NCBI GenBank assembly: GCA_030598645.1 | Contig: JAUVPN010000015.1 | Span: 1 to 17,008 of the forward strand | Direction of reading: 5' to 3' | DNA: 17,008 nt | Origin: Hyphomicrobium sp. | GTDB taxonomy: Bacteria; Pseudomonadota; Alphaproteobacteria; Rhizobiales; Hyphomicrobiaceae | Shown here: piece after piece, positions 5,605 through 14,475 of the stretch | How positions within the stretch are numbered: the stretch's first letter is position 1 | Layout: each line of letters begins with the position of its first letter | Made by a program: the position numbers and the translations under genes | Notes under the pieces: model-generated | Database searches by the model: none | What the model was told of the DNA's origin: nothing | What the model saw: only the letters and a program-made list of their open reading frames with translations

Positions 5605-5919
5605 ATGCGTCAGCTAAATCATGATCGGCGATCGAGGCCACGGCAGATCACGGTGTTGCTTCTCTGCTTGGGTATGACGGCCTATTTTGCTCATCACGCG
5701 TTCAATGGCCGACACGGCCTCGAGGCACGATCCAGGTTGACTGAACGGTCAGCCCTTTTGGAATTTGAGATCAAGAGCCTCGAGGCCGTGCGCGCCAAAC
5801 TTGAGCGCGATGTGGCGCTGCTGACGCCCCAATTGGCTGACTCCGACATTGTCGAAGAGATTGCGCGCGATGTTCTGGGCTTCGTACATCCTGACGATCG
5901 CCTGGTATTGGGCCGCTGA
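5605..5919 (+). CDS. FtsB/DivIC-like septum formation initiator protein
   Basis: Small bitopic membrane protein of 104 residues resembling FtsB/DivIC, which in characterised bacteria bridges FtsL and FtsQ in the divisome. A short basic N-terminus is followed by one membrane segment at about residues 15-33, then a predicted coiled coil at about 40-76 rich in E, L and R. The C-terminal motif IVEEIARDVLGFVHPDDRLVL is characteristic of the family. The frame is open back to TTG 5569, but ATG 5605 with GGAA just upstream gives the usual length. The position between eno and pdhA is common in alphaproteobacteria. Confidence 0.88.
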   Translation: MRQLNHDRRSRPRQITVLLLCLGMTAYFAHHAFNGRHGLEARSRLTERSALLEFEIKSLEAVRAKLERDVALLTPQLADSDIVEEIARDVLGFVHPDDRLVLGR

Positions 5920-6029
5920 GGCCGTTCTGGTCATCGGCAACCTCCTCTTGTAGATTTTGGGCAAGCCAACTCGTCAGTCGGCCAACCGCCGTGGTGCGAT
6001 CATCATCGCCAAGACCCTAGGTAAGCCCG

Positions 6030-7088
6030 ATGGCGCCAGCCAAAGCCCAACGCAGCCAAAGCCGCTCCTCTCCGGGCAAAACAAAATCGACGGCCCGACG
6101 CAAACGCCGGGTGTCGCCCGCCATTGCTTTGACCCCAGAGGAGCAACTTGAAACCTATCGTATGATGCTGCTGATCCGGCGCTTCGAGGAGAAGGCCGGG
6201 CAGCTCTACGGCATGGGTCACATCGGAGGATTTTGTCACCTCTATATTGGTCAGGAAGCGGTCGTGGTGGGGATGCAGGCCGGGTTGAAGCCAGGCGACC
6301 AGGTGATTACGGCGTACCGCGACCACGGTCATATGTTGGCGGTTGGCATGCATCCCAATGGGGTGATGGCCGAGCTCACTGGCCGGAGGGGGGGGTATTC
6401 TAAGGGCAAGGGGGGCTCCATGCACATGTTCTCTCAGGAGAAGCACTTTTATGGTGGGCATGGAATCGTCGGCGCCACCGCCCCGCTCGGGGCCGGGCTC
6501 GCATTTGCAAACAAGTACCGCGGCAATGACAATATTGCTCTTTGCTACTTTGGGGACGGGGCAACGAACCAAGGACAGGTCTACGAGACATTCAATATGG
6601 CAGAGCTGTGGGAGCTACCGGTTGTCTTCATCATCGAAAACAACCGGTATGCGATGGGAACTGCGATCGAACGATCTTCATCAACCACGAACCTTTCACA
6701 GCGCGGCATGTCGTTTGACATTCCAGGCGAGCAAGTCGATGGCATGGACGTGCACGCAGTGCGTGAAGCAGGTGCACGCGCGATCAAATACACTCGCTCC
6801 GGTAAAGGGCCAATCATTCTGGAGATGATGACCTATCGCTATCGCGGCCATTCGATGTCCGACCCGGCCAAATATCGCACCCGTGAAGAGGTGCAGAAAA
6901 TGCGCGAGACTCATGACCCGATTGCACACTTACGCGGAGAGATTTTGAGCGAAGGCTTGCCCGACGATGCGCTAAAGAAGATCGACCGCGAAGTTCGTGA
7001 TGTCGTAAATGCAGCCGCCGATTTTGCCCTCTCCGATCCCGAGCCCGATCCCGCAGAGCTCTATACCGACGTGGCCGTGGCTGATTGA
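6030..7088 (+). CDS. pdhA: Pyruvate dehydrogenase E1 component, alpha subunit
   Basis: Thiamine-diphosphate-dependent E1 alpha subunit, which with E1 beta decarboxylates pyruvate and reductively acetylates lipoyl groups. It has 352 residues. The first 30 residues are basic and Ser/Pro/Ala-rich, which is usual for alphaproteobacterial PdhA. The ThDP motif runs from GDG (175-177) to NN (204-205). The HGHMLA segment (99-104), GGSMHMF and the YRYRGHSMSDP loop (269-279) mark pyruvate-type E1. ATG 6030 is preceded by TAGGTAA at about 8 nt. The stop is 21 bp before pdhB. No clear promoter was seen in the 110 bp after the FtsB-like gene. Confidence 0.97.
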   Translation: MAPAKAQRSQSRSSPGKTKSTARRKRRVSPAIALTPEEQLETYRMMLLIRRFEEKAGQLYGMGHIGGFCHLYIGQEAVVVGMQAGLKPGDQVITAYRDHGHMLAVGMHPNGVMAELTGRRGGYSKGKGGSMHMFSQEKHFYGGHGIVGATAPLGAGLAFANKYRGNDNIALCYFGDGATNQGQVYETFNMAELWELPVVFIIENNRYAMGTAIERSSSTTNLSQRGMSFDIPGEQVDGMDVHAVREAGARAIKYTRSGKGPIILEMMTYRYRGHSMSDPAKYRTREEVQKMRETHDPIAHLRGEILSEGLPDDALKKIDREVRDVVNAAADFALSDPEPDPAELYTDVAVAD

Positions 7089-7109: not shown

Positions 7110-8489
7110 ATGCCGACACAAGTTCTGATGCCAGCTCTTTCACCCACCATGGAGGAGGGAACCCTTGCCAAATGGCTCGTCAAGGAAGGGCAGGACATCA
7201 AGTCCGGTGACGTGATCGCGGAGATCGAAACCGACAAGGCCACCATGGAAGTCGAGGCCGTTGATGAAGGCATTCTATCCCAAATCTTAGTTCCCGCAGG
7301 GACCGAGGGCGTGAAGGTCAACACGCCAATTGCGACTATCGATACTGAAGATGACAAGGAGGGAGCCCAAGAAGGCGAGGCTCCCGATAGCAAGCTCTCA
7401 CCGTTAATCGATAAACATGTCGCAGCGCGCTACGAGGATGTAGAGGTTAAGGCGCCAGCCCCACCGGCCGACGATGCAGCTAAACCGGATATTGCGACAC
7501 GAATAGAAACAGTCACGCTGACCATGCGTGAGGCCCTGCGTGACGCCATGGCCGAGGAAATGCGCCGCGATGCAGACGTGTTTCTCTTGGGAGAAGAGGT
7601 GGCAGAGTACCAGGGTGCCTACAAGGTAAGCCAAGGCTTGCTGGAGGAGTTCGGCGACAAGCGGGTTATCGATACACCTATCACCGAGCAGGGGTTTGCC
7701 GGCGTCGGAGTGGGCGCTGCTTTCTCGGGCCTGAAGCCCATTGTGGAGTTCATGACCTGGAACTTTGCAATGCAGGCAATCGACCAGATCATCAATTCAG
7801 CGGCAAAGACCCGCTACATGTCGGGTGGACAGATGAGCGTGCCAATTGTGTTTCGAGGGCCAAATGGGGCTGCTGCCCGCGTCGCGGCGCAGCACAGCCA
7901 ATGTTATTCGGCATGGTATGCGCACGTGCCAGGTCTCAAAGTTATCGCACCATCGACGCCTGGTGACGCCAAAGGCCTCCTGAAGAGTGCCATCCGTGAT
8001 CCCAATCCCGTTGTGTTCCTCGAAAACGAAATCCTATACGGGAGCAGCGGCGAGGTGCCGAGGGGCGACGATTGGATCGTACCGATTGGAAAGGCTCAGA
8101 TCGTGAGAAAGGGCGGGCATGTCACCATCGTTTCTTTTGCGCGCGGACTGACATACGCCTTGGAGGCCGCTGATCGGCTTGCCAAGGAAGGTATCGAGGC
8201 CGAAGTGATCGACTTGCGGACATTACGCCCCCTCGACCTGGACACAGTGTTAGGGTCAGTACGAAAGACAAATCGCATAATCACGGTGGAAGAAGCCTGG
8301 CCGGTTTGTTCTGTAGGATCTGAAATTTGCGCCCAAGTTGCGATGCAAGCCTTTGATGATCTCGACGCGCCACCCGCGAAGGTCTGCGGCGCGGATGTTC
8401 CGATGCCCTATGCCGCAAATTTGGAGGTGCTGGCGCTTCCCTCGGTTGAAAAGGTGATCGCGGCGGTCAAGTCGGTACTCTATGTATGA
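7110..8489 (+). CDS. pdhB: Pyruvate dehydrogenase E1 beta subunit with N-terminal lipoyl domain
   Basis: E1 beta subunit of 459 residues with a fused biotinyl/lipoyl domain, an arrangement known from Zymomonas and many alphaproteobacteria. Residues 1-78 are the lipoyl domain, with K43 in the ETDKA turn as the lipoylation site. Residues 79-132 form a linker that is acidic first and then Ala/Pro-rich. From about 134 the transketolase-type domain begins ([14 protein letters not shown], with E162 in [11 protein letters not shown]), followed by the transketolase C-terminal domain with [10 protein letters not shown] and TVEEAWP. ATG 7110 has GGGGA 9 nt upstream. In this locus it carries the only lipoyl domain, since the E2 encoded downstream lacks one. 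Confidence 0.97.
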
Positions 8490-8510: not shown

Positions 8511-8828
8511 ATGGTCAATGAGCTTCCAGTAGAGCTTGATCCACCCGAAGGTGTCGAAGAATCTGAAGCTGCGGTCGAAGTGCTGCGCGCATGGATCGGT
8601 GACGGCGCGCTTCTTGTATCGCTCAATTCGTCTGCGTTCGGAGACCACGTCGCAGATTGGGGACGGCTATTAGCCGAGATCGGCCATCACGTGGCTAAGG
8701 CAGTAGCCCTCAATGGGTACATGGAAGAGGACGAGGCGCTGGCTGCATTGCGAGAGTCCTTCTCGAGTGGCTTTGCGGAGTCGTCTGCCAGCATGTCTGG
8801 TCAACTCAAGGGGCAGACGAAGCATTGA
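8511..8828 (+). CDS. DUF5076 family protein
   Basis: Protein of 105 residues of unknown function, assigned to DUF5076 from recalled features: a Pro/acidic N-terminus, EVLRAWIGDGALLVSLNSSAF, then DWGRLLAEIGHHVAKAVALNGYMEEDEALAALRESF. It is probably a compact alpha/beta cytoplasmic protein, with no signal peptide or membrane segment. A perfect AGGAGG (8498-8503) sits 7 nt before ATG, the best ribosome-binding site in the PDH block, so it may be well translated. It lies between pdhB (21 bp upstream) and pdhC (116 bp downstream). The same placement recurs in related alphaproteobacteria as I recall, suggesting a role tied to the PDH complex, but no function can be named. Confidence 0.82.
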   Translation: MVNELPVELDPPEGVEESEAAVEVLRAWIGDGALLVSLNSSAFGDHVADWGRLLAEIGHHVAKAVALNGYMEEDEALAALRESFSSGFAESSASMSGQLKGQTKH

Positions 8829-8944
8829 GGCCGCGCCTCCGTTATTTCAGCTGCTTTCTTTGGGTTGCGATCGGCGGTCCTATCTTAATTTCGTTCATGA
8901 CGCGTCGATGGGCACGACGCTTCAAGCTTGAGAGGCGCCTGTAG

Positions 8945-9910
8945 ATGGTTACCTCAACCAGAGGTGATGACGATGAACGGATCTTAGCGTCTCCACTTGC
9001 GCGGAGATTGGCGGCTCAGATGGGCCTTGATCTTGCGAGCTTGCAGGGATCAGGTCCGCGTAGCCGCATAATCAAGCGCGATATCGAAGCCGCCATAGGA
9101 CTAGGCGACAGACGCGCTGCGAGCGGGCAGGCCGTCGCCGCTGTGCCGGCCACCGGTATGGCCGCAGTGCCGGCGCTTTCCGATGACAAGGTCCGGGCGC
9201 TCTACGACAAAGGCACCTACGAGATTGTTCCTCACGATAAAATGCGCAAGGTGATCGCAGAGCGCCTCACAATCGCGGCGCAGACCATTCCGCATTTTTA
9301 TCTGTCAATCGATTGCCGCCTCGACGAATTGATGCGCGCCCGCGAGCGGATGAATTCGGCCTCTCCACGCGAAGGTCCACGCGCTTACAAACTCTCTGTG
9401 AATGATTTCATCATTAAGGCGATGGCCCTCGCGCTGCAAGAAGTGCCGGAGGCCAATGCAACTTGGACCGAAGACGGGATGTTGCGTCATAAGTACTCCG
9501 ATTTGGGTGTCGCCGTAGCGGTTGACGGTGGCCTATTCACCCCCATTATTCATCAGGCCGAGGTGAAATCGCTCTCAGAGATCTCCAATGAGATGCGTGA
9601 TTTGGCCGAACGCGCGCGCAAGCGCCGACTAGCACCTCACGAATACCAAGGTGGAACTACGTCGATCTCGAATTTGGGAATGTACGGTATCAAGAACTTC
9701 GATGCCGTGATCAACCCGCCGCACGCGACGATACTTGCAGTTGGCGCCGCGGAACGCCGGGCAATTGTCGTCGCCGATGGTATCGCACCGGCCACCGTGA
9801 TGAATGTGACTCTTTCTTGCGATCATCGCGTGGTGGATGGCGCGTCGGGTGCTGCCTTACTTGGCGCCTTCAAGGCCTTTATTGAGGACCCGGTCCGCAT
9901 GTTGGTTTGA
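8945..9910 (+). CDS. pdhC: Pyruvate dehydrogenase E2 (dihydrolipoyl acetyltransferase) lacking a lipoyl domain
   Basis: E2 acetyltransferase that passes the acetyl group from lipoyl to CoA and forms the structural core of the complex. It has 321 residues, against roughly 420-460 for usual alphaproteobacterial PdhC. The N-terminus goes straight into the peripheral subunit-binding domain (about 14-50: SPLARRLAAQMGLDL...GSGPRSRIIKRDIEAA). A linker at about 51-90 and the catalytic domain follow, with H294 and D298 in DHRVVDG. No ETDKA-type lipoyl domain precedes it. An in-frame TAG (8942-8944) directly abuts ATG 8945, and only 116 bp separate it from DUF5076, too little for a hidden lipoyl domain. 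GAGAGG lies 9 nt upstream. The acetyltransferase domain looks intact, so this is not an obvious pseudogene. Confidence 0.93.
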   Translation: MVTSTRGDDDERILASPLARRLAAQMGLDLASLQGSGPRSRIIKRDIEAAIGLGDRRAASGQAVAAVPATGMAAVPALSDDKVRALYDKGTYEIVPHDKMRKVIAERLTIAAQTIPHFYLSIDCRLDELMRARERMNSASPREGPRAYKLSVNDFIIKAMALALQEVPEANATWTEDGMLRHKYSDLGVAVAVDGGLFTPIIHQAEVKSLSEISNEMRDLAERARKRRLAPHEYQGGTTSISNLGMYGIKNFDAVINPPHATILAVGAAERRAIVVADGIAPATVMNVTLSCDHRVVDGASGAALLGAFKAFIEDPVRMLV

Positions 9911-10149
9911 GAGTGTCTTGCGTTCAAAAGCAGAAGGAATTGGCCGATCTTAGATGCTTGCGGCGGCAGTATTTCATCGTTCAGCTAATTAGGCACTTTA
10001 GCCTCATTTCCACTATATAATTTATGCAGATGGAGGGGCAGGGCGGACGAATGGGGGATCCTGCTTGAGCTAATCGGCGGTGTGACCAGAAGTGTCAATG
10101 CGCCGTGAGCGTATCATTACCAACGGTTTCTGCCTCGGAGTATTGCGCC
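9911..10149 (+). promoter_or_regulatory. Gap after pdhC with a candidate promoter
   Basis: This 239-bp spacer breaks the tight pdhA-pdhC spacing. It holds a perfect -10 box TATAAT at 10016-10021, in an AT-rich stretch, but no good -35 at 16-18 bp. It may let the lipoprotein/lpd genes be transcribed separately from pdhABC. No terminator hairpin with a T-run was found after pdhC, and no gene is supported inside. Confidence 0.35.
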
Positions 10150-10923
10150 ATGAGGGCTAATCATGAATTCGAGTTCGCGCTGATTGCGATCGCCGCATTT
10201 ATGTCGGGCTGTGCGCAGGACGGCACCATGACGACCGGGAGCGTCAATGCCGTTCCCGATCCAGCTTGCGTGAAGCTTGCGACACAAATCAGGGGTCTGG
10301 AAGAACAAGGTGTGACGGAGAAGGTCTCCAATGCGGCAAAGAAAAAGTATAAACTGAATCCATCCGATCTAACCAAGGTGGCACAACTCAACAAGGCCAA
10401 TGCTACCTTCCAGTCGAGATGCTCAAACATGCCGCCAAAACCAAATCTGGCGTCGGTTCCGGCAAATACGACTAAAAAAACTAACGGAACAACGAAACCA
10501 AAAGTCGCGGCAAATAAGTCCCCGCCAATTCCGGTGCACAAGCCTTCAATCGCGGCTCTTGGAGAGACGGATGCAAGCGCTCAAGCTGAGAGTACACGCG
10601 AGCAAACGCAACCACCTCCTCAAACGGGTGCTGCTGCGATTGCCCCAATTATGAAGGGGAATCCTGACGCAGTTTCTCTATCGTCGCAGGGGGAAACGGC
10701 GGTCATTAATCGAACACCTCAGGACAAGCCCGAGGAACCACAGACAACGATAACAACGGGAACGATCCCCACCGCGCCATTCCTGCAGACCAAGCCTGCG
10801 GAAACGCAACCAACTCAACAGGTGGGAACTCCCGCAAGTGGACCTACAGCGCCGGGGACTCCAGAAGCGGTGCAACTATCTCCACGCACTGAAGCTCCAA
10901 CAGTTTTGCCGCCATCGCAGTAA
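10150..10923 (+). CDS. Putative lipoprotein with CX50C domain and Pro/Thr-rich tail
   Basis: Predicted 257-residue protein of unknown function. The N-terminus has a hydrophobic stretch (about 9-18) ending in a lipobox-like MSGC with C21, so export and lipidation are likely, although the n-region carries two Glu. Residues 40-91 form a compact segment bounded by C40 and C91, probably a disulfide-linked helical module. From about 92 to the end it is low complexity, rich in Pro, Thr, Gln and Ala, as in periplasm-spanning linkers. The Cys-bounded segment recurs in the next gene with identical Cys spacing. The frame is open back to 10105; ATG 10150 with GGAG 9 nt upstream places the lipobox correctly. 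Confidence 0.7.
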   Translation: MRANHEFEFALIAIAAFMSGCAQDGTMTTGSVNAVPDPACVKLATQIRGLEEQGVTEKVSNAAKKKYKLNPSDLTKVAQLNKANATFQSRCSNMPPKPNLASVPANTTKKTNGTTKPKVAANKSPPIPVHKPSIAALGETDASAQAESTREQTQPPPQTGAAAIAPIMKGNPDAVSLSSQGETAVINRTPQDKPEEPQTTITTGTIPTAPFLQTKPAETQPTQQVGTPASGPTAPGTPEAVQLSPRTEAPTVLPPSQ

Positions 10924-11034
10924 GTTGTGATGCCATCAAGGGAGGGGCTTGCGTCCCGCTTTTGCGTGTGGTGAAACGAGGCCGTGGCGTGTCCTTAGTT
11001 GGGGGTCGACGGGTTGGCGGAGACGAGGCTTAGA

Positions 11035-11304
11035 ATGCGCATTTCTAAGAGGGTTTCGATTGGCGCAGTGGCGCTTGGGTTTGCCGCGTGTGCTGCCGAC
11101 GGCAATCCCGGGGCAGCGGCACTTAGCGGTGGACAGACGTGCCAGTCCATTCGCGCTGATCTCAACGGCCTCGACAGCAAAGGTGTGCCAGCACTGGTGG
11201 AGCGGCAGAACGCCGGCAAGAAACTCTCAAAATCACAAAAAGCGCAGGCTGATCTCTATAATAAGCTTCTGAACGATTATCTCGGTGCACGCTGCCACGT
11301 ATGA
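11035..11304 (+). CDS. Small putative lipoprotein with the same CX50C domain
   Basis: Predicted 89-residue exported protein of unknown function. A basic n-region (RISKR) and a hydrophobic stretch lead to FAAC with C19, a borderline lipobox; type I cleavage nearby is possible. The mature part is almost only a module from C36 to C87 with GLDSKGV, several Lys, NK and a terminal RC. It aligns with residues 40-91 of the preceding protein: both are CX50C with GL..(Q/K)GV in the same positions. ATG 11035 is chosen over 10999 because it starts the signal peptide and has GAGG 6 nt upstream. It ends 62 bp before the lpd start. Confidence 0.7.
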   Translation: MRISKRVSIGAVALGFAACAADGNPGAAALSGGQTCQSIRADLNGLDSKGVPALVERQNAGKKLSKSQKAQADLYNKLLNDYLGARCHV

Positions 11305-11366
11305 TGAGCTGGGACTCGGCACCTTGTGTGCCGAGGGTAACACCCCAGCGGAAGGATGCGTGCCGC

Positions 11367-12830
11367 ATGTCTAGTCGAGACTATGACATTATCGTCCTTG
11401 GAGCCGGGCCAGGCGGCTACGTGGCCGCGATACGTGCTGCGCAGCTGGGTTTTCGCACCGCGGTCGTTGAGCGCGCGCATTTGGGCGGCATTTGCCTCAA
11501 CTGGGGTTGCATCCCAACAAAGGCGCTCCTGCGTTCTGCAGAAGTCTATCGTATTTCCGGCCGCGCCCAAGAGTTCGGCATTGTGCATAACGCCCAGATC
11601 GCAGCGGATTTGGAAAAGATGGTAGGGCGTTCGCGGGCAGTGGCAAGTGAACTCAATACGGGTATCGGCTTTCTACTGAAAAAGAATGGCGTCGATGTCA
11701 TTTGGGGAGAGGCTCGTATCGGCGAACGCGGAAACCTGTCCGTCAGTGCACCGAAGAAGAAATCAGGGGGCTATGAACTAGCCGCGCCAAAGGGCGCGCT
11801 AAGTGCCGGCGAATACTCAGCCAACCACATTATCGTTGCCAGCGGCGCGCGACCGAGAGTGCTTCCTGGTCTCGAACCCGACGGCAAGTTGATCTGGACG
11901 TATTTTGAGGCCATGGCGCCGCCCGCGATACCGAAGTCTCTGCTGGTTGTTGGTTCAGGTGCGATAGGCATTGAGTTCGCGTCCTTCTATCGTGCGCTCG
12001 GGGTGGACGTGACGGTAGTGGAAATCCTGCCAGAGATTCTGCCGGCCGAAGACGCCGAGATTTCGGTGCTTGCACACAAGGCCTTCGAGAGGCATGGCAT
12101 AAGGTTCTTCACCAGTGCCAAAGTGACTAAGGTTGAGAACGGGATCAATGAGGTCGCCGCGACTATTGAGTTTAGCGACGGCAAGACGGAGACGATCAAG
12201 GCGGAGCGTGCAATTTCCGCTGTCGGTGTCGTCGGCAACGTCGAGGGGCTGGGGCTGGAAGAGCTAGGCGTTTCGATCGACCGGGGGACAATTCTTACTG
12301 ACCAGGTGGGTCGGACGAACGTGACAGGTATCTACGCTATTGGAGATGTCGCGGGAGCACCGATGCTGGCGCACAAGGCCGAGCACGAGGGTGTCGCATG
12401 CGTCGAGGCGATAAAGCGACTCAATGTTCGGGGTCTCGATAAACTGCGGATTCCCAGCTGCACGTACTCCGATCCCCAGATTGCATCAGTGGGCCTCACT
12501 CAAGACAAGGCGATTGCGGCCGGTCGCGAGGTGCGCGTTGGGCGCTTTCCTTTTCGGGCCAATGGCAAGGCATTGGCCTTAGGCGAGCGCGAAGGTCTTG
12601 TCAAAACCATCTTCGATGCCAAAACGGGTGAGCTAATTGGTGCCCACATGATCGGCTCGGAGGTCACCGAGCTGATCCAGGGCTTCGTCATTGCGATGCA
12701 ACTCGAGGCCACTGAAGAAGATCTCATGCATACGGTCTTCCCACATCCTACACTATCGGAGATGATGCATGAGAGTGTGCTGGCGGCTTACGGTCGCGCA
12801 ATCCATATTCCACCCGTTACTGGCCGCTGA
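11367..12830 (+). CDS. lpd: Dihydrolipoamide dehydrogenase (E3)
   Basis: FAD flavoprotein that reoxidises dihydrolipoyl groups with NAD+; E3 of the pyruvate dehydrogenase complex and possibly of other 2-oxoacid complexes. It has 487 residues. The FAD-binding motif is GAGPGGY (12-18), the redox disulfide is C43/C48 in GGICLNWGCIPTK, the NAD site is VGSGAIGIEFASFY, and the second FAD motif is IYAIGDVAGAPMLAHKA. The catalytic H460-E465 pair is in HPTLSE. No lipoyl domain is fused to it. The frame is open to 11301, but ATG 11367 fits the family N-terminus, with GAAGGA 10 nt upstream. It binds the subunit-binding domain of the E2 encoded upstream. Confidence 0.97.
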   Translation: MSSRDYDIIVLGAGPGGYVAAIRAAQLGFRTAVVERAHLGGICLNWGCIPTKALLRSAEVYRISGRAQEFGIVHNAQIAADLEKMVGRSRAVASELNTGIGFLLKKNGVDVIWGEARIGERGNLSVSAPKKKSGGYELAAPKGALSAGEYSANHIIVASGARPRVLPGLEPDGKLIWTYFEAMAPPAIPKSLLVVGSGAIGIEFASFYRALGVDVTVVEILPEILPAEDAEISVLAHKAFERHGIRFFTSAKVTKVENGINEVAATIEFSDGKTETIKAERAISAVGVVGNVEGLGLEELGVSIDRGTILTDQVGRTNVTGIYAIGDVAGAPMLAHKAEHEGVACVEAIKRLNVRGLDKLRIPSCTYSDPQIASVGLTQDKAIAAGREVRVGRFPFRANGKALALGEREGLVKTIFDAKTGELIGAHMIGSEVTELIQGFVIAMQLEATEEDLMHTVFPHPTLSEMMHESVLAAYGRAIHIPPVTGR

Positions 12831-13557: not shown

Positions 13558-14475
13558 ATGAATGCAAAGATCGAGGGGGTAGCCAGAGCGGGTGGGAAGT
13601 TCTTGGCAAAGCCAGATTGGATACGAGTTAAAGCGCCGCGGGATTCGGCGGCGATCGCGGAGACGGCGCACATCGTTCGCGCACGTGGTCTGCACACTGT
13701 TTGCGAGGAAGCCAGATGCCCCAACATCAGCGAGTGTTGGGTCAAGCGGCATGCCACCTTCATGATCATGGGTGACACCTGCACGCGCGCCTGCGCTTTT
13801 TGCAATGTGCGCACCGGCCAGCCGCTGCCGCTAAATCGCAGTGAGCCTGAGAACGTGGCAAAAGCGGTGCGTGAGTTGGGTCTGACGCACGTTGTCATAA
13901 CATCGGTTGACCGAGACGATCTTGTCGATGGTGGGGCTCATCACTTCGCCCGCGTAGTCAACGCGATCCGCACAGAATCTCCTAGCATTACCATCGAGGT
14001 TTTGACCCCTGATTTTTTGCGTAAAGAGGGTGCGCTTGAGGCGATCGTCGATACGGCTCCCGACGTTTTCAATCACAATCTGGAAACGGTTCCGCGACTT
14101 TACCTATCCATTCGGCCTGGTGCGCGCTATTTCCATTCACTTCGCCTCTTGCAGCGCGCAAAAGAGCTCGACGAGCAACTTTTTACCAAGTCGGGGATCA
14201 TGGTCGGCTTAGGCGAGGCGCGCGAAGAAGTAATGCAGGTAATGGACGACCTCCGGACAGCTCGAGTGGATTTCCTCACGATAGGGCAATATCTGCAACC
14301 GAGCCGCCGTCATGCCGAAGTAAAGCGTTTCATTCCGCCTGACGAGTTCGAAGCCCTGCGCCGCATTGCTACCGCCAAAGGCTTTCTGCTAGTAGCTGCG
14401 AGCCCATTAACGCGCTCCTCCTATCATGCTGCAGAGGACTTCGAACGCCTCAAGAATGCGCGAAGGGCGACCTGA
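13558..14475 (+). CDS. lipA: Lipoyl synthase
   Basis: Radical SAM enzyme that inserts two sulfur atoms into octanoyl groups on lipoyl domains, making the cofactor needed by PDH. It has 305 residues. The auxiliary cluster ligands C49, C54 and C60 are in [13 protein letters not shown], and the radical SAM cluster C75, C79 and C82 in CTRACAFC. The C-terminal RSSYHA (286-291) supplies the Ser ligand to the auxiliary cluster. [10 protein letters not shown] and [12 protein letters not shown] are family signatures. The likely target in this locus is K43 of the E1 beta lipoyl domain. ATG 13558 has AAAGG at a long 12-nt spacing. lipB is not in the window. Confidence 0.97.

What the first reader, a model, noticed from the sequence alone, without database searches (positions are those of the whole stretch)
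8945..9910. PDH E2 without any lipoyl domain; the only lipoyl domain in the locus is on E1 beta
The E2 begins at its E3/E1-binding domain, is about 100 residues shorter than usual PdhC, and is blocked upstream by an in-frame TAG touching its ATG. The 116 bp before it cannot hide a frameshifted lipoyl domain. E1 beta carries an intact lipoyl domain with K43, and E3 has none. In the standard mechanism E2 lipoyl arms carry the acetyl group; here the swinging arm would have to be on E1 beta and visit the E2 active site. Fused E1 beta lipoyl domains are known, normally in addition to an E2 lipoyl domain, so complete transfer of the arm would be a rearranged PDH architecture.
Basis: partly seen in the sequence, partly recalled or inferred. 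Interest (0 to 1): 0.72.

Follow-up and report, generated by a model that had tools for sequence, protein, structure and literature searches.

The report
Pyruvate dehydrogenase with relocated swinging arm
In this bacterium and its relatives the central enzyme that turns pyruvate into acetyl-CoA has dropped the lipoic-acid swinging arm from its usual subunit (E2) and seems to keep one only on a neighbouring subunit (E1 beta), a rearrangement that could show which subunit really needs to hold the arm.

Summary
E2 (8945-9910, 321 aa) has the subunit-binding domain and acetyltransferase core but no lipoyl domain (LD); an in-frame TAG touches its ATG. The locus's only LD is on E1 beta, with its lysine. 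It is no assembly error: the 120 listed best protein hits are 291-335 aa without LD, and records of Hyphomicrobium strains not titled MAG show it. On a tree of 103 E2s the LD was lost at least twice, in Hyphomicrobium and inside Methyloceanibacter (one clade rejected, AU p 0.001). E1 beta keeps its LD in 11 of 11 readable LD-less loci; dN/dS is 0-0.13. In 13 of 15 LD-less genomes the one other E2-type gene carries its own LD and is SucB-like where checked; AceE passes its cut-off in 1 of 15. Best reading: a working PDH whose sole arm hangs on E1 beta, after loss of a redundant E2 copy. LDs on E3 (Mycoplasma) or E1 beta (Zymomonas) are known; an LD only on E1 beta appeared in none of my paper listings. 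The window's own genome is not held; lipoylation is untested.

The parts
6030..7088 (+). pdhA, E1 alpha (352 aa)
   Evidence: PF00676; TIGR03182 equivalog 497.5 bits over cut-off 393.85
7110..8489 (+). pdhB, E1 beta with N-terminal lipoyl domain (459 aa)
   Evidence: PF00364 + PF02779 + PF02780; NF008854 equivalog 786.6 bits over 454
7119..7340 (+). lipoyl domain of E1 beta (residues 4-77), the only one found in the locus
   Evidence: PF00364 E 7.4e-20
7236..7238 (+). codon of K43, predicted lipoyl-lysine (ETDKA)
   Evidence: invariant in the 11-sequence alignment A2
7350..7484 (+). linker between E1 beta LD and E1 beta core, about 45 residues
8511..8828 (+). DUF5076 protein (105 aa) inside the gene row
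   Evidence: PF16826 E 3.5e-21
8829..8944 (+). gap with the decayed 3' end of a membrane-protein gene (similarity 8874-8938); no lipoyl domain found
   Evidence: alignment score 59 to L001 (300 base shuffles: max 49) and 60 to L082 (max 37); 21-25 in three LD-bearing control loci; no LD
8942..8944 (+). in-frame TAG directly before the E2 start
8945..9910 (+). pdhC, E2 without lipoyl domain (321 aa)
   Evidence: TIGR01349 matched only from profile position 133 of 437
8981..9088 (+). E3/E1-binding (peripheral subunit-binding) domain
   Evidence: PF02817 E 2.8e-14
9215..9904 (+). acetyltransferase core
   Evidence: PF00198 E 3e-80
9821..9841 (+). active-site motif DHRVVDG
   Evidence: pattern DHR.[VI]DG present in 13 of 13 LD-less, 87 of 87 LD-bearing and 3 of 3 cut E2 rows
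11367..12830 (+). lpdA, E3, no lipoyl domain found
   Evidence: TIGR01350 550.9 bits over 408.8
13558..14475 (+). lipA, lipoyl synthase
   Evidence: TIGR00510 383.9 bits over 310.25

Best explanation
A functional pyruvate dehydrogenase in which the lipoyl arm is carried only by E1 beta. E1 (alpha2 beta2) docks on the binding domain of E2; its own LD, on a linker of about 43-67 residues, is acetylated at the E1 active site, swings to an E2 core active site to hand the acetyl group to CoA, and to E3 (docked on other binding domains) to be re-oxidised. E2 is reduced to scaffold plus acetyltransferase. The state arose by loss of the E2 copy of the LD in ancestors that had an LD on both subunits. 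Shown here: domain content, conservation, at least two losses, purifying selection, and only one other E2-type gene (with its own LD, SucB-like where checked) in 13 of 15 LD-less genomes. Inferred: lipoylation of K43, docking, and travel of the arm to E2 and E3.
For: LD-less E2 in all 120 listed hits of 8000 scored and in 13 of 100 uncut E2 rows on the tree, in two places. E1 beta LD with DKA lysine in 11 of 11 readable LD-less loci; an LD also heads E1 beta in three more LD-less loci, L122-L124. dN/dS in eight, partly overlapping, LD-less pairs: E1 alpha 0.05-0.12 (six pairs), E1 beta LD 0-0.10, E1 beta core 0.05-0.11, E2 0.04-0.13. The E1 beta LD is of PDH-E2 kind (TIGR01349 114.6 bits against sucB 56.1) and resembles its own genome's E2 LD more than permuted pairs do (mean identity 0.805; highest of 5000 permuted means 0.760; 57 loci). 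13 of 15 LD-less genomes have exactly two PF00198 genes, the other one with an LD in the same frame; in G213 and G292 one contig is about as long as the whole held genome. AceE over cut-off in 1 of 15; POR domain in 2 of 15. No GcvH in 7 of 12. E2 homology reaching into the binding domain in 12 of 13 LD-less rows.
Against: No direct evidence of lipoylation or activity. The window's own genome is not held. E2 scores below the curated cut-off of its PDH model (393 against 445), as expected for a missing LD. The E1 beta linker is not clearly changed (median 59 against 49, p 0.07, not corrected for kinship), and LD constraint is not visibly tighter than in ten LD-bearing pairs. L014 has frame breaks in E1 alpha and E2 and L055 an in-frame stop near the E2 end, so single genomes may be decaying or badly sequenced. 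In the family of G003, 53 of 103 genomes have AceE over cut-off, so this PDH can be replaced. Several LD-less genomes are MAGs, where absence of a gene is weak evidence.
Confidence: 0.85

Rival explanations
1. The arm comes in trans from another lipoyl protein, such as the LD of SucB (a mixed PDH/OGDH assembly, as in Actinobacteria in mirror image) or a GcvH-type protein.
For: An LD-bearing second E2 is in all 15 LD-less genomes searched, SucB-like by its LD in the 10 genomes sampled. Precedent: the actinobacterial OdhA uses lipoyl groups of E2p (PMC10415282, passages).
Against: E1 beta keeps an LD of PDH kind under purifying selection. The SucB-like LDs stand apart from the PDH LDs on a long branch. 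GcvH is missing in 7 of 12 LD-less genomes.
Confidence: 0.06
2. The locus is a decaying or non-PDH remnant; PDH is supplied by an AceE/AceF system or by a ferredoxin enzyme.
For: G003 has AceE-AceF-Lpd; 53 of 103 genomes of its family have AceE over cut-off; POR domain in G001 and G047; frame breaks in L014.
Against: AceE over cut-off in only 1 of 15 LD-less genomes and POR in 2 of 15; low dN/dS in all parts; active-site motif in 13 of 13. Other routes such as pyruvate-formate lyase were not searched.
Confidence: 0.05
3. Assembly or sequencing artefact, or a deletion private to this window.
For: Part of the gap before E2 is decayed sequence.
Against: Same architecture in other data: P0001 (96% identical), P0002-P0005 (83-85%), L003 and L007, G213 and G292. 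From E1 beta stop to the start of E2 homology there are only 15-67 bases in L002, L007, L014 and L083.
Confidence: 0.01
4. An unrecognised LD substitute sits in the gene row (DUF5076, the membrane protein, or the new N-terminal segment of Methyloceanibacter E2).
For: Extra genes lie between pdhB and pdhC in several LD-less loci.
Against: L002, L007 and L083 have no room for such a gene between pdhB and pdhC; DUF5076 also occurs in LD-bearing relatives.
Confidence: 0.02

Closest known systems
Zymomonas mobilis PDH (Neveling et al. 1998/1999; seen only as citations in passages of PMC7873978 and PMC7494870)
   Same: Lipoyl domain in E1 beta of an alpha2beta2 E1 (cited title)
   Different: Recalled, not tested: Z. 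mobilis also has an LD on E2. Here E2 has none.
Mycoplasma hyopneumoniae PDH (PMC7873978, passages; Matic et al. 2003 as a cited title)
   Same: LD located on a subunit other than E2; that subunit is the lipoylated one by western blot
   Different: There the LD is on E3 (PdhD); here on E1 beta, with no LD found on E3
Actinobacterial OdhA/KGD (PMC10415282, passages)
   Same: An acyltransferase that depends on lipoyl groups provided in trans
   Different: There E1o and E2o are fused and the LD sits on E2p of the PDH
Rhizobiales PDH with LD on both E1 beta and E2 (here Rhodopseudomonas, Bradyrhizobium and others)
   Same: Same gene order pdhA-pdhB-pdhC and the same E1 beta LD
   Different: E2 also has an LD; that copy is lost in the window's clade

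Membership tests
Pyruvate dehydrogenase complex (alpha2beta2 E1 type) | E1 alpha and E1 beta of PDH type | tested here: met
   TIGR03182 and NF008854 over their cut-offs
Pyruvate dehydrogenase complex (alpha2beta2 E1 type) | E2 acetyltransferase core with DHRxxDG motif and subunit-binding domain | tested here: met
   PF00198 and PF02817; motif; best match among solved structures is a PDH E2, E 9.6e-79
Pyruvate dehydrogenase complex (alpha2beta2 E1 type) | E3 dihydrolipoyl dehydrogenase in the locus | tested here: met
   TIGR01350 over cut-off
Pyruvate dehydrogenase complex (alpha2beta2 E1 type) | At least one lipoyl domain with lysine in the complex | tested here: met
   On E1 beta, K43
Pyruvate dehydrogenase complex (alpha2beta2 E1 type) | Overall PDH activity | not testable with these tools
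   needs biochemistry
TIGR01349 full-length PDH E2 | Whole-protein score over the curated cut-off, LD included | tested here: not met
   393 bits against 445; matched profile 133-437 only
Short E2 models NF011416 (347 positions) / NF008815 (308 positions) | Score over curated cut-off | tested here: not met
   192.1 against 429 and 135.7 against 378
Zymomonas-type PDH (LD on E1 beta in addition to E2; E2 part recalled) | LD on E2 as well | tested here: not met
Mycoplasma-type PDH (LD on E3) | LD on E3 | tested here: not met

The most novel reading that the evidence does not exclude
A PDH architecture in which E1, not E2, owns the sole swinging arm, evolved at least twice among Hyphomicrobium and Methyloceanibacter: every acetyl transfer then depends on E1 being docked on E2, the number of arms is set by E1 occupancy rather than by the E2 core, and the E2 lipoyl domain, usually held to define a PDH E2, is dispensable in nature.
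Probability: 0.8. Interest if true: 0.62.

Novelty: new variant of a known kind. Interest (0 to 1): 0.57.

Why it matters
Textbook PDH puts the swinging arm on E2; what a second LD on E1 beta adds is, to my knowledge, not settled. Natural loss of the E2 copy, at least twice, suggests that the E1 beta LD alone can serve all three active sites. It offers ready-made systems (Hyphomicrobium and Methyloceanibacter strains, with LD-bearing relatives as controls) to test how arm position and number affect active-site coupling, and it warns annotators not to call such short E2s truncated.

Tried and rejected
Hidden or frameshifted LD before E2: none by profile search in three forward frames of the E1 beta-E2 gap in 13 LD-less loci. 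Single origin of the LD-less state: rejected (AU p 0.00112, quick tree; the Hyphomicrobium clade alone has support 91, not starred). Longer E1 beta linker as compensation: not significant (one search stopped with an error before its own linker test). Tighter constraint on the E1 beta LD: not visible in eight LD-less against ten LD-bearing pairs. Transfer of the E2 LD to E1 beta: not needed, since the LD-bearing relatives have E1 beta LDs too. A possible E2 without binding domain in G349 (L126) proved to be a run of unknown residues in the record. Structure prediction of E2 gave a poor model (mean pLDDT 42) and was not used; no fold search was run. The 39-aa reading frame 8825-8944 that I first noted as a possible gene is better read as decayed membrane-protein sequence. 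The E3 query in script one search was read one base out of frame by my mistake, so its E3 rows mean nothing; it was put right. The window's frame at 1116-1820 has no PADLOC match.

Full report
What is there. The window holds a gene row with pdhA (6030-7088), pdhB (7110-8489), a DUF5076 gene (8511-8828), pdhC (8945-9910), lpdA (11301-12830, likely start 11367) and lipA (13558-14475). Pfam finds the E3/E1-binding domain and the acetyltransferase core in PdhC and nothing before them; PdhB has a lipoyl domain (LD) at residues 4-77 with K43 in ETDKA; no lipoyl family matches E3. The in-frame TAG at 8942-8944 touches the ATG, and GAGAGG at 8930-8935 is a plausible ribosome-binding site. NCBIfam places E1 alpha, E1 beta and E3 over their cut-offs; E2 matches the PDH E2 model TIGR01349 only from position 133 of 437 and so stays under its cut-off, 393 against 445.

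It is conserved, not an accident. In a search of about 5.8 billion proteins (8000 candidates scored, 120 listed) all 120 listed hits are 291-335 aa long and carry only PF02817 and PF00198, although proteins up to 1.75 times the query's length were eligible. After dropping 8 loci that repeat genomes already present (a few identical rows remained), 103 E2 rows (94 different) were left: 87 with an LD in the same frame, 13 without, 3 cut by a contig end. LD-bearing E2s with a complete LD match (84) measure 433-497 aa, median 456, from LD to stop.

At least two losses. On the E2 tree the 13 LD-less rows fall in two places: nine Hyphomicrobium-type rows including the window (support 91, not starred) and four Methyloceanibacter-type rows (99, starred), the latter beside LD-bearing rows L032, L043 and L048. 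Starred branches force at least two changes; holding the 13 together is rejected (log-likelihood lower by 82, AU p 0.00112). The Methyloceanibacter-type E2s start with a different, shared N-terminal segment of about 40-45 residues, which fits a separate event.

A wider look. Of 397 genomes drawn from the order, 359 have a match to the window's E2 at E 1e-70; the match table was cut short. Among the rows listed, 11 have an open frame under 400 aa. Eight are LD-less (G001, G003, G004, G007, G045, G180, G213, G292), G313 and G349 carry an LD, and G216, at a contig end, was not checked. G008 is LD-less in spite of a 461-aa open frame, so open-frame length is no count of the trait.

E1 beta is the remaining carrier. 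The E1 beta LD with its lysine is present in 11 of 11 LD-less loci where the N-terminus can be read (2 more are cut) and in 57 of 57 readable LD-bearing loci (14 more have E1 beta cut or broken, and 16 have no E1 beta in the stretch); it also heads E1 beta in the LD-less loci L122-L124. Thus the E1 beta LD most likely predates the losses, and the event is loss of a second copy, not transfer. The E1 beta LD is PDH-E2-like. In 57 LD-bearing loci it is on average 0.805 identical to the E2 LD of the same genome, against 0.740 for permuted pairs (highest of 5000 permutations 0.760); the own E2 LD is the best match among E2 LDs in 13 of 57 and closer than the closest other genome's E1 beta LD in only 2 of 57. 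Co-evolution or occasional exchange would explain this, but kinship among the genomes is not corrected for.

Selection. Simple dN/dS for eight LD-less pairs (partly overlapping, and including L014 and L055) is 0.05-0.12 for E1 alpha (six pairs), 0-0.10 for the E1 beta LD, 0.05-0.11 for the E1 beta core and 0.04-0.13 for E2; the window against L001 gives 0.05-0.10. The active-site pattern is in 13 of 13 LD-less E2s. So the complex looks kept, not decaying. Against this, L014 has frame breaks in E1 alpha and E2, and L055 an in-frame stop near the E2 end.

Whole genomes of relatives. The window's own genome is not held. In 15 LD-less genomes (G001-G009, G045-G047, G180, G213, G292), 13 have exactly two PF00198 genes: the short PdhC and one E2 with an LD in its frame. 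In G001 that gene is SucB by family scan and follows a 988-aa frame that I read as SucA without a scan; G003 shows the same arrangement. By its LD it is SucB-like in the 10 genomes sampled (G001-G009, G045); G046, G047, G180, G213 and G292 were not opened for this. The exceptions are G003, with an AceE-AceF-Lpd row, and G002, with a third E1-E2 row beside an acyl-CoA synthetase-like gene (names by my reading). G213 and G292 lie on contigs of 3.42 and 3.21 Mb, about the whole held genome; each has five PF00364 matches: the second E2, E1 beta, two that look like biotin carboxyl carriers by size (inferred), and a weak partial one. AceE is over its cut-off in 1 of 15 (G003), the POR domain in 2 of 15 (G001, G047). 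GcvH proper is found in 5 of 12 tested; a sixth match lies inside AceF of G003. Several of these genomes are MAGs, so single absences are weak. In the family of G003, 53 of 103 genomes have AceE over cut-off and 39 of 103 a pdhC-like match at 1e-60; of the eight LD-less genomes in that family only G003 has AceE. So AceE is common in the family but rare where the LD-less PDH stands; other routes from pyruvate, such as pyruvate-formate lyase, were not searched.

The gap before E2. The E1 beta-E2 gap shows no LD in three forward frames in any of 13 LD-less loci (best E 1.6). In the window its end aligns with the 3' end of a membrane-protein gene that lies intact in L001 (152-aa frame) and, shortened, in L082 (scores 59 and 60; shuffle maxima 49 and 37; three LD-bearing controls 21-25). 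In L002, L007, L014 and L083 only 15-67 bases separate the E1 beta stop from the start of E2 homology. The missing LD is therefore unrelated to the decay seen in the window.

How it most likely works. E1 bound to the E2 binding domain uses its own LD: acetylated at E1, it reaches the E2 core and then E3. Domain content and conservation are shown; lipoylation, docking and travel are inferred from established PDH chemistry. With two LDs per E1 tetramer (inferred), arm number follows E1 occupancy. The linker is 43-67 residues in LD-less loci and 30-114 in LD-bearing ones, not clearly different (p 0.07).

What is known. PMC7873978 (passages) reports by western blot that the lipoylated PDH subunit of Mycoplasma hyopneumoniae is E3 (PdhD), cites Matic et al. 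2003 for a 'novel lipoyl domain arrangement', and cites Zymomonas mobilis for an LD in E1 (its text says PdhA; the title it cites says E1 beta). PMC10415282 (passages) describes actinobacterial OdhA, which uses lipoyl groups of E2p in trans. PMC6067878 (passages) covers the lipoate-binding protein LbpA in Hyphomicrobium denitrificans sulfur oxidation; the passages shown do not treat that organism's PDH. The 1998 Zymomonas paper is not held; that its E2 also has an LD is recalled. Ten searches listed no title or abstract start naming a PDH with an LD only on E1 beta. I file it as a new variant of a known kind.

Noticed in passing
window 8829-8944; L001 5529-5987; L082: A membrane-protein gene between DUF5076 and pdhC is intact in L001, shortened in L082 and decayed in the window: stepwise loss of a gene of unknown role.
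   Followed up: partly
L122 (about 5823-5933), L037, L040, L045, L055: Methyloceanibacter-type E2s without LD share a new N-terminal segment with a conserved SSAEHVMDRIAEQIL-like stretch in place of the LD.
   Followed up: no
L003 and L115 (G003:C4:906000-920000): Hyphomicrobium sp. NDB2Meth4 carries both the LD-less PDH and an AceE-AceF-Lpd row; 53 of 103 genomes of its family have AceE over cut-off, suggesting replacement of pdhABC by AceEF in the family.
   Followed up: partly
LD-bearing loci, e.g. L006, L011, L032: The E1 beta and E2 lipoyl domains of one genome resemble each other more than permuted pairs do, which hints at exchange or co-evolution between the two copies.
   Followed up: partly
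L014, L055, L125 (G313): Frame breaks or in-frame stops in pdh genes of single genomes; sequencing error or decay not resolved.
   Followed up: no
window 10105-10923 and 10999-11304: Two reading frames between pdhC and lpdA without Pfam match; the longer looks rich in Pro, Thr and Ala.
   Followed up: no
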